Positions 1-52,677 of a DNA stretch of 64,000 nt are shown here, in pieces (position 1 is the stretch's first letter; every line of letters starts with the position of its first letter). A program made the translations under genes and the position numbers. The notes below the pieces were generated by a model. That model did no database searches, had not been told where the DNA came from, and worked only from the letters and a program-made list of their open reading frames with translations. This DNA comes from an uncultured Gammaproteobacteria bacterium (GTDB lineage Bacteria > Pseudomonadota > Gammaproteobacteria > Eutrophobiales > Eutrophobiaceae), in contig CATOTD010000003.1 of assembly GCA_951812995.1 (NCBI GenBank), positions 1-64,000 on the forward strand, given 5' to 3'.

Positions 1-1269
1 GGTTTTGACGCGAGCACCAGTCGTTGTCACCCGCATAGCGGGTGTGAAGGTCAAGATCGGTGGTATTTGAGGCTGTGTTGCGCTGTTTGGGTCTGCCAGG
101 GCGGGTATTTCCGGAATTTGGACAGAGTCAGGCTGTGGCCTGTCGTCGCTCGTGGAAGATGAGACGGCGGAAGTTGTAGCTCAGGTTGGCCATGGTCATG
201 CGGGCCTTCGCACGGGTTTGGCCGATTGAGCGGATGGTCAGAGCCATGGGCCCTTTCTCGTAGCCGAACACAGGCGCGGATGGCGGAGCGTGTCGCGTTG
301 CCCCGACGAATATGCCTGGCCATGGGTTTGCCGCGTGGCTTCTTGCGATGGATATGTGAGCGGTACCCTTGCGCCTTCAGCCAAGCCTCATTCCTGGCCG
401 AGCGGTACCCGGTATCGGCCCAAACCGCCTTCGAGCTGTTTGTCTCGTCCAGAACCGAGGAGCGTTCATGCCCGTCGTAGCGAGCCGCATTCGTGCCAGT
501 CTCACCCCGGATGAAGTGCCATTTGCGGTCAATGGACACGTGGTTCTTGTACCCAAAGTGTGGGACCGAGATATCGACAAGGCCAGTATCCTCCTCACCC
601 TCCTTGGTCGTCTTGGCCTTTGAATACTTGACCGTCCAACGCGCATCGGTGTCTTTCTGCGCTGCCTTGGACAGATCATCGGGCCAGATGTCAGATGCGG
701 CCTCACCTGCCTTGGCGCGCGCTTTCTCTTCTTTCGTCATCCGCTGGCGCGGGGCAAAGACCAACGTGGCATCCACAATCTGACCGCCGGTCGGTTTGTA
801 TCCCCGCGCGCAGAGCTGAGCTTCAAACGCGGCAAACAGGGCCTTGAAGACACCCGCCTAGGTCAGCTTCTCTCTGAAAAGCCAGATCGTCTTCTGATCA
901 GGTGTCGGCTCCCCGATTTGAAATCCCAGGAACCGTAGCCAACTGAAACGGTCACGAATGAGAAACTCCATCCGCTCATCACTCAGATTGTGCATCGATG
1001 CCAAAACAAGCACCTTGAACATCACAACGGCATCATAGGGCGGACGACCACCTTTGGGACGTTCCCCATAGCCAAGTGCTTCAACAAGAACTGGGCGAAA
1101 CACTTCGAAATCAACGTGCCGCTCCAAAACCTCAAGCGGATCTCCCATCGCCGAAAGCCGCGCCAAATGATCCGTCAAATCAAACAATCCAGGTGCGGGC
1201 ATAAACAAAATCCTCCCACATCAAGTGAATCAGATCGTACCACAAAATGCACGGTTTTTAGAGGCTTCC
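1..1269 (-). mobile_element. IS5-family element, copy A (left ~30 bp outside window); transposase interrupted by TAG and by a C-terminal frameshift
   Basis: Near-identical to copies at 5195-6484, 13608-14906 and 29062-30360; end sequence GAGGCTTCC at 1261-1269; ORFs 858..1208 and 51..776 are two parts of one transposase. Confidence 0.9.
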
Positions 1270-1320: not shown

Positions 1321-1683
1321 GGGGGCGTACTGGCTTCGACGTGGATATGAAAACTGATGGGCATGCCGAGGTGCAGATTACCTCGTAAATACTTCTGCAA
1401 ACCTTATAGTTGCCAACGAAGACAACTACGCACTAGCGGCTTAATAACCTGTCTTAGTGCCGTCTGCCTGCTGATGTGCTTGTGCACGGTAGGTCTAGGC
1501 GTCGACTTTCACAAGACCGCAATGAAACCCGTCCGAGGTGGATTTGTTAAAACTTGATCGGAATCGCGTTCTGTCTTCCCTGCCGGTCGGGTAGCAGAAC
1601 GTTAAATTAAAGATTCGGCTAAGCATGTAGATCTGATGGCAGAGGATTTGCGGACGCGGGTTCGATTCCCGCCGCCTCCACCA
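1321..1683 (+). ncRNA. ssrA: transfer-messenger RNA (tmRNA), tag ANEDNYALAA
   Basis: 5' GGGGGCGTACTGGCTTCGACG and 3' GGTTCGATTCCCGCCGCCTCCACCA pair as a tRNA-Ala-like acceptor/T arm; GCC AAC GAA GAC AAC TAC GCA CTA GCG GCT TAA TAA at 1412-1447. Confidence 0.96.
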
Positions 1684-4868: not shown

Positions 4869-5062
4869 CAATGTTCCGCCGTAACAGTTTGGGCTTGATT
4901 TGGTGCTCACCGTTCATCAAGAGATGCCAGAACAATAGGCAACACCCTGAGTTTGGGCACAGATAGTTGGGACGTGATTCGCCATTTTGACGGTGATAAA
5001 AAATAGTGGTCGTCATAGGCAGGGAGTATTGATCTAACACCTTTGCGCTGAAGCGATACTTG

Positions 5063-5125
5063 TCCGACTCGACTCGATCCAACCACGCCCAGCTTGCCCC
5101 CACCACACCCCAGCCCGATCCGACT
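5063..5125 (-). repeat. Degenerate pentanucleotide array 2
   Basis: Reverse complement: gtcgg atcgg gctgg ... cgtgg ttgga tcgag tcgag tcgga. Confidence 0.65.
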
Positions 5126-5194
5126 TTAGGGAACCTCTATTAATGCAATCACTTTCCAGTTTATTGGCTCAGAGAGGTTAAAAAATAACCAATT

Positions 5195-6484
5195 GGAGAC
5201 CTCGAACAACGCTGATTCTGGATGGGTTTTGACGCGAGCACCAGTCGTTGTCACCCGCATAGTGGGTGTGAAGGTCAAGATCGGTGGTATTTGAGGCTGT
5301 GTTGCGCTGTTTGGGTCTGCCAGGGCGGGTATTTCCGGAATTTGGGCGGAGTCAGGCTGTGGCCTGTCGTCGCTCGTGGAAGATGAGACGGCGGAAGTTG
5401 TAGCTCAGGTTGGCCATGGTCATGCGGGCCTTCGCACGGGTTTGGCCGATTGAGCGGATGGTCAGAGCCATGGGCCCTTTCTCGTAGCCGAACACAGGCG
5501 CGGATGGCGGAGCGTGTCGCGTTGCCCCGACGAATATGCCTGGCCATGGGTTTGCCGTGTGGCTTCTTGCGGTGAATGTGTGAGCGGTACCCTTGCGCCT
5601 TCAGCCAAGCCTCATTCCTGGCCGAGCGGTACCCGGTATCGGCCCAAACCGCCTTCGAGCTGTTTGTCTCGTCCAGAACCGAGGAGCGTTCATGCCCGTC
5701 GTAGCGAGCCGCATTCGTGCCAGTCTCACCCCGGATGAAGCGCCATTTGCGGTCAATGGACACGTGGTTCTTGTACCCAAAGTGCGGAACCGAAATATCG
5801 ACAAGGCCAGTATCCTCCTCACCCTCCTTGGTCGTCTTGGCCTTTGAATACTTGACCGTCCAACGCGCATCGGTGTCTTTCTGCGCTGCCTTGGACAGAT
5901 CATCGGGCCAGATGTCAGACGCGGCCTCACCTGCCTTGGCGCGCGCTTTCTCTGCTTTCGTCATCCGCTGGCGCGGGGCAGAGACCAACGTGGCATCCAC
6001 AATCTGACCGCCGGTCGGTTTGTATCCCCGCGCGCACAGCTGAGCTTCAAACAGGGCCTTGAAGACACCCGCCTGGGTCAGCTTCTCTCTGAAAAGCCAG
6101 ATCGTCTTCTGATCAGGTGTCGGCTCCCCGATTTGAAATCCCAGGAACCGCAACCAACTGAAACGGTCACGAATGAGAAACTCCATCCGCTCATCGCTCA
6201 GATTGTGCATCGAGGCCAAGACCAGCACCTTGAACATCACAACGGCATCATAGGGCGGGCAACCACCTTTGGGACGTTCCCCATAGCCAAGCGCTTCAAC
6301 AAGAACTGGGCGAAACACTTCGAAATCAACGTGCCGCTCCAAAACCTCAAGCGGATATCCCATCGCCGAAAGCCGCGCCAAATGATCCGTCAAATCAAAC
6401 AATCCAGGTGCGTGCATAAACAAAATCCTCCCACATCAAGTGAATCAGATCGTACCACAAAATGTACGGTTTTTAGAGGCTTCC
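5195..6484 (-). mobile_element. IS5-family element, copy B (1290 bp; internal TAG absent, 9-bp deletion, C-terminal frameshift)
   Basis: Ends GGAGACCTC/GGCTTCC as in other copies; ORF 5275..6423 382 aa; CAG where copies A/C/D have TAG. Confidence 0.9.
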
Positions 6485-13607: not shown

Positions 13608-14906
13608 GGAAGCCTCTAAAAACCGTACATTTTGTGGTACGGTCTGATTCACTTGATGTGGGAGGATTTTGTTTATGCACGCACCTGGATTGTTTGATTT
13701 GACGGATCATTTGGCGCGGCTTTCGGCGATGGGATATCCGCTTGAAGCTCTGGACTGTCATGTGAATTTCGAAGCGCTCCGTCCCGTTTTGGTGGCAGCG
13801 CTTGGCTATGGGGAACGTCCCAAAGGGGGTCGCCCGCCCTATGATGCCGTTGTGATGTTCAAGGTGCTGGTCTTGGCCTTGATGCACAATCTGAGCGATG
13901 AGCGGATGGAGTTTCTCATTCGTGACCGTTTCAGTTGGCTACGGTTCCTGGGATTTCAAATCGGGGAGCCGACACCTGATCAGAAAACGATCTGGCTTTT
14001 CAGAGAGAAGCTGACCTAGGCGGGTGTCTTCAAGGCCCTGTTTGCCGCGTTTGAAGCTCAGCTCTGCGCGCGGGAATACAAACCGACCGGCGGTCAGATT
14101 GTGGATGCCACGTTGGTCTTTGCCCCGCGCCAGCGGATGACGAAAGCAGAGAAAGCGCGCGCCAAGGCAGGTGAGGCCGCGTCTGACATCTGGCCCGATG
14201 ATCTGTCCAAGGCAGCGCAGAAAGACACCGATGCGCGTTGGACGGTCAAGTATTCAAAGGCCAAGACGACCAAGGAGGGTGAGGAGGATACTGGCCTTGT
14301 CGATATTTCGGTTCCGCACTTTGGGTACAAGAACCACGTGTCCATTGACCGCAAATGGCACTTCATCCGGGGTGAGACTGGCACGAATGCGGCTCGCTAC
14401 GACGGGCATGAACGCTCCTCGGTTCTGGACGAGACAAACAGCTCGAAGGCGGTTTGGGCTGATACCGGGTACCGCTCGGCCAGGAATGAGGCTTGGCTGA
14501 AGGCGCAAGGGTACCGCTCACATATCCATCGCAAGAAGCCACGCGGCAAACCCATGGCCAGGCATATTCGTCGGGGCAACGCGACACGCTCCGCCATCCG
14601 CGCCTGTGTTCGGCTACGAGAAAGGGCCCATGGCTCTGACCATCCGCTCAATCGGCCAAACCCGTGCGAAGGCCCGCATGACCATGGCCAACCTGAGCTA
14701 CAACTTCCGCCGTCTCATCTTCCACGAGCGACGACAGGCCACAGCCTGACTCCGCCCAAATTCCGGAAATACCCGCCCTGGCAGTCCCAAACAGCGCAAC
14801 ACAGCCTCAAATACCACCGACCTTGACCTTCACACCCACTATGCGGGTGACAACGACTGGTGCTCGCGTCAAAATCCATCCAGAATCAGCGTTGTTCGAG
14901 GTCTCC
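13608..14906 (+). mobile_element. IS5-family element, copy C (1299 bp), inserted into IS256-A with 4-bp duplication AGGT
   Basis: AGGT at 13604-13607 and 14907-14910; ends GGAAGCCTC/GAGGTCTCC. Confidence 0.92.
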
Positions 14907-20277: not shown

Positions 20278-20388
20278 TTGGTCAAGCGTGGCGTGGGTCG
20301 GGTCGGGCGGAGTCAAGTCGGGCGGAGTCGAGTCGGGCTGGGTCAAGCGGGGTCAAGCCGGGCCGGGTCAAGCGGGGTCGGATCGGGC
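20278..20388 (+). repeat. Degenerate pentanucleotide array 3
   Basis: ggtcg ggtcg ggcgg agtca agtcg ggcgg agtcg agtcg ggctg ggtca agcgg ggtca agccg ggccg ggtca agcgg ggtcg gatcg. Confidence 0.88.
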
Positions 20389-24452: not shown

Positions 24453-24500
24453 TGCTATAGGCTTATCGCACGCCATCGCCGTCAACTTGTGTATAACGCT

Positions 24501-24813
24501 GGGTCGATCTGAGTCGGCCCGGGCTGAGTCAAGTTGAGCGGGTTCGGACCAAGCAGGTTCAGGCTGAGTCGAGTCAAGCCGGGGGTGGCTGAGTTGAGTT
24601 GAGCGGGGCCGGACAGGGTTCAACGTGGTTGGATCGGCCCGGGCTGATTCGGCCCCCCGGGGCAAGCCGGGTGTGGCTGAGTCAAGCGGGGTTGAGCCGG
24701 GTGTGGCTGAGTCAAGTCGAGCGGGTTCGGGCTGAGTCGAGTCGATCTGAGTTGAGTCGAGCGGGGCTGGGCCAAGCAGGATCGGGCGTGAGTCGATCTG
24801 AGTCAAGCCGGGG
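24501..24813 (+). repeat. Degenerate pentanucleotide array 4 (largest, ~310 bp)
   Basis: Parses almost entirely into 5-mers: gctga gtcaa gtcga gcggg ttcgg gctga gtcga gtcga tctga gttga gtcga gcggg gctgg gccaa gcagg atcgg; 30-bp superrepeat gccgggtgtggctgagtcaag. Confidence 0.93.
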
Positions 24814-25813: not shown

Positions 25814-26984
25814 GAACCTCTGATTAATTAAGGATTTTCAAGCAAGTGGGCATCACTGTGCTCGATAGTAGCGAGCATTGAACGTCTTGCTCATTACTCT
25901 CTTTCATTTCTCTTGTCCCGGCCTACTGTTTTCAGCTATCGTCCCTATTCCAGGCGTACTAAGCCACTGATAGCCGTAATAATTGTTTCTTTGATAGCAT
26001 AAGATTAATCAGGGCACAGTGGGCAAACAGGTGGTCCGCATTCTTGCCTGGCCCTTTGAATCTGACTTTGGTAAATCCATATTGTCGCTGCATGATATGA
26101 AAGACATGCTCAACCTTGGCACGGACTTTGGATTTGTGCCGGTTTTTAGCCTTGTCCTGTTCGGTCAGTTTGCGGTGACGTGAGCCTTTGACCTGGGTGT
26201 AGTCTTTTACCTTGGGGTCATTATCCTTGAGTACGGATTGCTGACCCGCATAGGCACTATCTCCCCAAAGACGGGTCTCTTCTCCATGCAGTAGGTCTCC
26301 AAGTACCTGTGAGTCGTGGACATGGGCTGGTGTGGCAACAACAGAGTGTATCAGTTTGGTTTTGCTATCCACACCGATGTGCGCCTTCATGCCAAAGTAC
26401 CATGGCTTGCCTTTTTTGGTCTGATGCATATCAAGATCACGGGTTTTGCTTTTGTTCTTGGTGGCGGTAGGCGCATTGATGATGGTCGCATCAACCATGG
26501 TGCCTTTGGATACTTGCATGCCGTTTTCCTCCAGATAGACGGCAACAGCATCAAACAGGGTAGCTCCGAGGTTGTTCTCCTCCAGCAGATGACGGAATTT
26601 ACAGCGGGTGCTTGCATCTGGCACGGGTTCCTGACCTAAGTCTATCTGGGCAAAGCACCGCATGGCAGGTGTGTCATATAAAGCCGCTTCTGTGGCAGGA
26701 TCAGATAAGGCAAACCAGTGTTGCAGGAAGTAGATTCTCAGCATGCGTTCCATGCCCACCGGACGGCGACCAGCACCCCGGGGGTTGGGGTAATGAGGCT
26801 CAATTACTGCAGTCAGCACTTTCCAGGGAATGAGCTGATTCATCTCTTCGAGAAATATCTCTTTGCGTGTCTGCTTGCGGTATTTCTCGAATCCAGATAC
26901 TGCCAGGCTTTTTTGTTGCATCTTTTCACCCTCCACTTAAAACATTGCGGTATTATCGCATATTATGGCATTAATCAGAGGTTC
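25814..26984 (-). mobile_element. IS5-family element of a second type, transposase apparently intact (25959..26936)
   Basis: IR GAACCTCTGATTAAT/ATTAATCAGAGGTTC; 325-aa transposase with VKAKVEHVFHIMQRQYGF-type C-terminus (RAKVEHVF). Confidence 0.92.
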
Positions 26985-29061: not shown

Positions 29062-30360
29062 GGAAGCCTCTAAAAACCGTGCATTTTGTGGTACGATCTG
29101 ATTCACTTGATGTGGGAGGATTTTGTTTATGCACGCACCTGGATTGTTTGATTTGACGGATCATTTGGCGCGGCTTTCGGCGATGGGAGATCCGCTTGAG
29201 GTTTTGGAGCGGCACGTTGATTTCGAAGTGTTTCGCCCAGTTCTTGTTGAAGCGCTTGATTATGGTGACCGCCCTAAGGGAGGTCGCCCGCCCTATGATG
29301 CCGTTGTGATGTTCAAGGTGCTGGTGTTGGCATTGATGCACAATCTGAGCGATGAGCGGATGGAGTTTCTCATTCGTGACCGTTTCAGTTGGTTGCGGTT
29401 TCTGGGATTTCAAATTGGGGAGCCGACCCCTGACCAGAAGACGATCTGGCTTTTCAGAGAGAAGCTGACCTAGGCGGGTGTCTTCAAGGCCCTGTTTGCC
29501 GCGTTTGAAGCTCAGCTCTGCGCGCGGGGATACAAACCGACCGGCGGTCAGATTGTGGATGCCACGTTGGTCTCTGCCCCGCGCCAGCGGATGACGAAAG
29601 AAGAGAAAGCGCGCGCCAAGGCAGGTGAGGCCGCGTCTGACATCTGGCCCGATGATCTGTCCAAGGCAGCGCAGAAAGACACCGATGCGCGTTGGACGGT
29701 CAAGTATTCAAAGGCCAAGACGACCAAGGAGGGTGAGGAGGATACTGGCCTTGTCGATATTCCGGTTCCGCACTTTGGGTACAAGAACCACGTGTCCATT
29801 GACCGCAAATGGCGCTTCATCCGGGGTGAGACTGGCACGAATGCGGCTCGCTACGACGGGCATGAACGCTCCTCGGTTCTGGACGAGACAAACAGCTCGA
29901 AGGCGGTTTGGGCCGATACCGGGTACCGCTCGGCCAGGAATGAGGCTTGGCTGAAGGCGCAAGGGTACCGCTCACACATTCATCGCAAGAAGCCACGCGG
30001 CAAACCCATGGCCAGGCATATTCGTCGGGGCAACGCGACACGCTCCGCCATCCGCGCCTGTGTTCGGGTACGAGAAAGGGCCCATGGCTCTGACCATCCG
30101 CTCAATCGGCCAAACCCGTGCGAAGGCCCGCATGACCATGGCCAACCTGAGCTACAACTTCCGCCGTCTGATTTTCCACGAGCGACGACAGGCCACAGCC
30201 TGACTCCGCCCAAATTCCGGAAATATCCGCCCTGGCAGACCCAAACAGCGCAACACAGCCTCAAATACCACCGACCTTGACCTTCACACCCGCTATGCGG
30301 GTGACAACGACTGGTGCTCGCGTCAAAACCCATCCAGAATCAGCGTTGTTCGAGGTCTCC
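29062..30360 (+). mobile_element. IS5-family element, copy D (1299 bp), TAG plus C-terminal frameshift
   Basis: Ends GGAAGCCTC/GAGGTCTCC; same length as copy C. Confidence 0.92.
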
Positions 30361-49639: not shown

Positions 49640-49790
49640 AGTGGGTTGAGATAGGTCGGGATCGGGTCAAGCGTGGTCGGACCGGAGCGGGTCAAGCGTG
49701 GTCGGGGTTGGGTCGCGATGGATTCCGCTGGGTTGCGCTGGATCAAGATGAACCGCGCTGGATCAAGGTGAGGTCGCGCTGAGGTCGTGA
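49640..49790 (+). repeat. Degenerate pentanucleotide array 6
   Basis: gatcg ggtca agcgt ggtcg gaccg gagcg ggtca agcgt ggtcg ... cgctg gatca agatg aaccg cgctg gatca aggtg. Confidence 0.88.
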
Positions 49791-52540: not shown

Positions 52541-52677
52541 CTGGGCCGGGCTGGACCGAGATGGGTCTGACCCGGCCAAGTTGGATCGGGTTGGGCGTGG
52601 CGTGAGTTGAGCGTGGTTGGCGTGGGTCGAGCGTGGTTGGTCGGGGTTGGCGTGGGTCGAGCGTGGTTGGTCGGAGC
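52541..52677 (+). repeat. Degenerate pentanucleotide array 7
   Basis: gggtt gggcg tggcg tgagt tgagc gtggt tggcg tgggt cgagc gtggt tggtc ggggt tggcg tgggt cgagc gtggt tggtc; near-exact 30-bp superrepeat. Confidence 0.88.

What the first reader, a model, noticed from the sequence alone, without database searches (positions are those of the whole stretch)
5195..6484. All four IS5-type copies share a lesion removing the putative catalytic Glu and shifting frame
In every copy the segment encoding (R)SAIRA[HVEH]VFGYEK reads CGC TCC GCC ATC CGC GCC TGT GTT CGG; the expected xVEHVF block (DDE glutamate; compare RAKVEHVF in the intact IS at 25959-26936) is missing about 11 nt, while the +1 frame continues FGYEKGPMALTIRSIGQTRAKARMTMANLSYNFRRLIFHERRQATA*. 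A shared lesion in copies at unrelated sites means it predates their spread, implying mobilisation in trans or by unusual decoding.
Basis: partly seen in the sequence, partly recalled or inferred. Interest (0 to 1): 0.75.

Follow-up and report, generated by a model that had tools for sequence, protein, structure and literature searches.

The report
Mass-amplified IS5 copies lacking catalytic Glu
About 135 of 141 copies of one jumping gene in this bacterial genome share the same 11-base deletion that removes the enzyme's catalytic glutamate, yet such dead copies have still been copied to new sites, most likely with enzyme from the few undeleted copies, while short stretches of sequence appear to be constantly swapped among all copies.

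Summary
All four window copies carry an 11-nt deletion (removing VEH and shifting frame). Genome-wide, 135 sites carry the deletion and 6 keep VEH. Among 124 full-length copies the split is 119:5. Homologues are not naturally shorter: 19 of 19 relatives covering the site keep the Glu. Unusual decoding is not needed, because intact copies exist: three (L093, L094, L095) have VEH and an unbroken 363-codon frame, although each changes one otherwise conserved or near-conserved residue. Deleted copies do move: two of them differ by 2 bases in 1.3 kb, lie in unrelated DNA and have perfect 4-bp target duplications; one has a paralogous empty site. A second shared defect, CAG-to-TAG, is in 71 of 124 copies. 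But "the lesion predates the spread" is not secure for every copy: linkage disequilibrium collapses within 100 bp (r2 0.57 to 0.01), so short-tract gene conversion, or an assembly artefact mimicking it, also moves alleles between copies. Best reading: a non-autonomous IS5-family population, amplified in trans and mixed by conversion. Both processes are known; the extreme ratio, and the reported cis-preference of E. coli IS5 transposase, make it a clear but not categorically new case.

The parts
5195..6484 (-). Complete IS5-family element (1290 bp, transposase on - strand); the copy in the finding
   Evidence: Ends conserved in the full-length copies; NCBIfam transpos_IS5_4 149 bits over its cut-off of 140, Pfam DUF772
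6467..6484 (-). Terminal inverted repeat at the transposase start side (GGAAGCCTCTAAAAACCG)
   Evidence: a 45-bp version is found 143 times in the genome at <=3 mismatches
5195..5211 (-). Other end, CGTTGTTCGAGGTCTCC (read inward GGAGACCTCGAACAACG), imperfect inverted repeat of the first end
5275..6423 (-). Open frame of the lesion copy (382 aa), in the original frame up to the deletion and out of it after
5493..5496 (-). Scar of the shared 11-nt deletion (between GTG repeats) that removes Val-Glu-His
5352..5492 (-). Remnant of the transposase C-terminus left in another frame (FGYEK...RRQATA*)
   Evidence: same residues in frame in intact copies
6040..6058 (-). Site of a second, in-frame 9-bp deletion (FAA missing) shared by 8 of 124 full-length copies
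1..1269 (-). Second window copy, cut by the contig start; same 11-nt deletion at 254-274; TAG nonsense codon at 855-866
13608..14906 (+). Third window copy; same 11-nt deletion at 14603-14623; TAG nonsense codon at 14011-14022
29062..30360 (+). Fourth window copy; same 11-nt deletion at 30057-30077; TAG nonsense codon at 29465-29476

Best explanation
This is an IS5-family insertion sequence whose population in one genome has become almost wholly non-autonomous. One copy suffered an 11-nt deletion between two GTG repeats, losing the catalytic Glu (VEH) and the frame behind it. It kept both ends, so it could still be moved by transposase made by undeleted copies. Deleted copies were mobilised in trans and now outnumber VEH copies by over 20 to 1. 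In parallel, short-tract gene conversion among the ~150 copies mixes their sequence, spreading and occasionally removing the deletion and a second defect (CAG to TAG). Shown: the deletion, its count, loss of the conserved Glu, existence of undeleted copies, and a recent insertion of a deleted copy. Inferred: that undeleted copies supplied the enzyme, that the deletion arose once, and that the mosaicism is biological.
For: 135 deleted against 6 VEH sites; 119 against 5 among 124 full-length copies. Glu kept in 19/19 relatives. The DDE_Tnp_1 match stops below its cut-off in the lesion protein but reaches the profile end in L095 and L094. VEH-bearing unbroken frames in L093, L094, L095. Deleted copies L034 and L061 differ by 2 bases, at unrelated sites, with TSDs AGCT and AACT; freely shuffling 100-bp blocks gives a minimum pair distance of 10.6 on average, never below 6 in 200 trials. 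A paralogous locus shows the L061 site uninterrupted with AACT once. The closest 45 pairs are all deleted-deleted. r2 falls from 0.57 below 10 bp to 0.01 beyond 100 bp, and 78% of site pairs show all four gametes. One shared local sequence context around the deletion in nearly all copies supports a single origin.
Against: Each of the three full-frame VEH copies changes a residue that is conserved or nearly so: D186G in L095, F318C in L094, G267R in L093. No demonstrably active helper is therefore in hand; L093 also misses the DDE_Tnp_1 table. E. coli IS5 transposase is reported to act mainly in cis (PMC11677980). Only 27 of 110 copies have matching 4-bp flanks (13.5 expected by shuffling), so most copies give no clean record of insertion. 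The mosaicism could be partly an assembly or polishing artefact. Deleted-deleted pairs dominate the closest pairs partly because deleted copies are 96% of the set; only one pair clearly exceeds the shuffled-block null.
Confidence: 0.7

Rival explanations
1. Undeleted copies did nearly all the jumping; the deletion arose later in one copy and was spread into already inserted copies by gene conversion alone, as described for non-functional IS copies in Wolbachia wBm.
For: Linkage between sites collapses within 100 bp; the TAG allele needs 33 changes on the tree; VEH alleles lie inside short divergent patches. Precedent: Cordaux 2009 as summarised in PMC3196728.
Against: L034 and L061, both deleted, are near-identical over the full length at unrelated sites with perfect TSDs, which short conversion tracts would not give. 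Many other alleles remain at intermediate frequency rather than homogenised.
Confidence: 0.19
2. Unusual decoding or a re-used glutamate restores activity, so deleted copies are autonomous.
For: A deleted copy moved recently; most CAG deleted copies keep a long open frame (48 of 50).
Against: The missing residues are not encoded in any frame; all relatives keep the Glu in the same motif; 69 of 119 deleted copies also carry a TAG early in the frame; TAG ends several long frames in the window, so there is no sign of reassignment (not a rigorous test).
Confidence: 0.04
3. Assembly or polishing artefact: the assembler or a short-read polisher imposed a consensus on a collapsed repeat, so the lesion count and the mosaicism are not what the cells carry.
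For: Contigs break at copies (the window starts inside one); flanks are shared or exchanged between copies; apparent recombination at about short-read scale.
Against: Copies differ by a median of 40 positions and no two of 124 are identical; VEH copies survive as distinct sequences; an 11-nt deletion in 135 places is not a typical sequencing error.
Confidence: 0.06

Closest known systems
IS5-family insertion sequences (NCBIfam NF033581 transpos_IS5_4; DUF772 + DDE_Tnp_1)
   Same: Transposase architecture, R-x-x-x-E motif (RACVEHVFGYEK) in intact copies, about 1.3 kb, imperfect terminal repeats, 4-bp duplications
   Different: Nearly all copies lack the catalytic Glu and the original C-terminal frame
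Non-autonomous IS derivatives and MITEs mobilised in trans
   Same: Ends kept, enzyme lost, moved by another copy's transposase
   Different: Here the element is almost full length and differs from the autonomous form by only 11 nt, retaining a long frame for an altered protein
Gene conversion among non-functional IS copies in Wolbachia wBm (Cordaux 2009, Mol Biol Evol 26:1679; known here through PMC3196728 and PMC3004938)
   Same: Many similar dead copies in one genome, concerted evolution by conversion
   Different: Here the copies are strongly mosaic, and at least one dead copy clearly transposed
Amoebophilus asiaticus IS load (PMC3196728)
   Same: Very IS-rich genome, many copies without direct repeats
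   Different: There truncations are not shared and conversion was largely ruled out; here one lesion is nearly fixed

Membership tests
IS5 family | Transposase matches a curated IS5 model above cut-off | tested here: met
   NF033581: intact L095 191.6 bits, window copy 149.2 bits, cut-off 140
IS5 family | DDE triad with third acidic residue in an R(3)E(6)K-type motif | tested here: met
   Met in intact copies (RACVEHVFGYEK) and in 19/19 relatives for the Glu; not met in the 119 deleted copies
IS5 family | Terminal inverted repeats and 4-bp target duplication | tested here: met
   Ends; 27/110 matching 4-bp flanks against 13.5 expected, none for 5 bp or more; empty site with AACT once
Non-autonomous elements mobilised in trans | Own enzyme inactive | tested here: inconclusive
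   Catalytic Glu and frame lost by sequence; activity not assayed
Non-autonomous elements mobilised in trans | Defective copies transpose | tested here: met
   L034/L061 pair, TSDs and paralogous empty site
Non-autonomous elements mobilised in trans | Active helper with matching ends present | tested here: inconclusive
   L093, L094, L095 have ends, VEH and full frame but each has a change at a conserved or near-conserved residue
Gene-converted IS population | Decay of linkage with distance among copies | tested here: met
   artefact not excluded without reads

The most novel reading that the evidence does not exclude
The IS population behaves like a recombining population in which dead copies dominate and the catalytic segment is occasionally restored to dead copies by gene conversion from a divergent subfamily. 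In L100 the VEH allele is a patch of about 50 bp (columns ~953-1007) with 11 differences, in a stretch otherwise like the deleted consensus for over 100 bp on both sides; in L092, L093 and L095 the patch is about 150 bp. Autonomy would then be a transient state passed among copies by conversion rather than a lineage.
Probability: 0.2. Interest if true: 0.6.

Novelty: new member of a known kind. Interest (0 to 1): 0.4.

Why it matters
Bacterial IS transposases, including E. coli IS5, are described as mainly cis-acting (PMC11677980), which should stop dead copies from spreading. Here dead copies make up about 96% of a 141-copy family and at least one moved recently. With over 100 copies sharing one deletion and a few undeleted ones, this genome is a natural test of cis-preference, of parasitism of an IS by its own defective form, and of how conversion shapes such a population.

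Tried and rejected
Naturally shorter homologues: rejected, 19/19 relatives keep the Glu. TAG reassigned as sense: no sign, TAG ends several long window frames. The closest relatives by identity (about 91% aa in an uncultured Rhodobacteraceae MAG; about 78-82% in a gammaproteobacterial MAG) were examined for the lesion but are fragments broken before it, so they do not tell. Eleven other genomes of the same genus have no copy, so there is no outgroup within the genus; the L061 site was also not found in them, but a paralog in the same genome gave the empty site. A tree of copies was built but, given the linkage decay, is not treated as a genealogy. Naming the species was not possible from the handles. 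No structure prediction was run, so the triad assignment rests on motif conservation.

Full report
What was checked. The four window copies (1-1269 -, 5195-6484 -, 13608-14906 +, 29062-30360 +) all show the same junction. Against copies that keep the segment, the difference is exactly 11 nt. In L094 the undeleted reading is GCC TGT GTG GAG CAC GTG, so the loss fits slippage between two GTG repeats.

How many copies. A search of the window's own genome (3.05 Mb, 17 contigs) found more than 150 matches. Pattern scans gave 135 deletion sites, with none in the reversed control, and 6 VEH sites. I fetched and aligned 124 near-full-length copies: 119 deleted, 5 with VEH. A CAG-to-TAG change at codon 117 is in 71 of 124, including two VEH copies. 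Only L093, L094 and L095 have VEH and an unbroken 363-codon frame, and each changes one residue that is conserved or nearly so among relatives and copies; G267R is also present in 44 of the 124 copies. None of 11 other genomes in the genus has the element.

What the lesion does. The protein is an IS5-family transposase (NF033581). In the intact form D146, D265 and E315 would be the DDE triad (positions, assignment by family knowledge). All 19 relatives that span the site keep the Glu, from about 34 to 59% identity. The lesion protein's Pfam DDE match falls just below its cut-off and stops before the C-terminal part; L095 and L094 match to the end. So deleted copies should be catalytically dead; this was not assayed.

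Do dead copies move? L034 (C3:102633-103931) and L061 (C6, about 83932-85230) are both deleted, differ by 2 bases over 1299, sit in unrelated DNA and have perfect 4-bp duplications, AGCT and AACT. If 100-bp blocks are shuffled freely among deleted copies, the closest pair differs by 10.6 on average and never under 6 in 200 trials, so this pair is not a by-product of mixing. Joining the L061 flanks with one AACT aligns without a break at the duplication to a paralogous locus at C2:41.6-42.2 kb. A deleted copy was therefore inserted recently. The enzyme must have come from elsewhere; undeleted copies with the same ends are the natural source, but this is inference. The closest 45 pairs are all deleted-deleted, while VEH copies are 22-51 changes from their nearest neighbour; since deleted copies are 96% of the set, the former is only weak support by itself.

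Why 'predates the spread' is not certain. Among 120 informative sites r2 falls from 0.57 under 10 bp to 0.04 at 30-100 bp and 0.01 beyond; 78% of site pairs show all four combinations. The TAG allele needs 33 changes on a tree. Only 27 of 110 copies have matching 4-bp flanks against 13.5 by shuffling, and some flanks recur beside different copies. This points to pervasive exchange between copies, by conversion and crossing-over, unless assembly produced it. The VEH alleles themselves sit in short divergent patches in four of the five VEH copies. Gene conversion can thus have spread the deletion in part.

Selection. Among deleted copies, the ratio of amino-acid-changing to silent variants relative to expectation is 0.61 for singletons and 0.19 for common variants. 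The common variants look like differences inherited from functional lineages and the rare ones look less constrained, as expected if the enzyme is now mostly unselected. This is a coarse measure on a recombining set.

Comparison. Trans-mobilised defective elements and MITEs are known, and gene conversion keeping dead IS copies alike is described for Wolbachia wBm (Cordaux 2009, through PMC3196728). E. coli IS5 transposase is reported as mainly cis-acting (PMC11677980), which makes the present ratio notable. I file this as a new member of a known kind.

Verdict. Observation confirmed and extended; interpretation partly supported: trans-mobilisation yes, unusual decoding no, timing of the lesion relative to the spread not settled.

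Noticed in passing
window 5060-5140, 20281-20388, 24498-24760, 49654-49781, 52598-52674; L034:1500-1699; L018:2800-2850: Degenerate arrays with periods of 15, 20, 25 and 30 built from five-base words such as GTCGA, GTCGG, GTCAA, GACTC; IS copies sometimes sit in or beside them.
   Followed up: partly
aligned copies, codon 117 (window 14011-14022, 29465-29476, 855-866): CAG-to-TAG nonsense allele in 71 of 124 copies; the C lies in a CCAGG context, a possible methylation hotspot, but conversion is also likely.
   Followed up: partly
flanks of L007/L010, L005/L021, L027/L035, L031/L037: The same flank recurs beside different copies, suggesting inter-copy crossing-over, segmental duplication or misassembly.
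   Followed up: partly
L195, L204, L206 (CATOSB01); L196 (OX638335.1): Closest relatives outside the genome are broken fragments in an uncultured Rhodobacteraceae MAG (about 91% aa) and a gammaproteobacterial MAG (about 78%), suggesting transfer between classes.
   Followed up: partly
window 1321-1683 (+): tmRNA gene, about 50 bp beyond the end of the first IS copy.
   Followed up: no
window 25959-26936 (-): Intact transposase of a different IS5-type element (DUF772 + DDE_Tnp_1 to the profile end).
   Followed up: no
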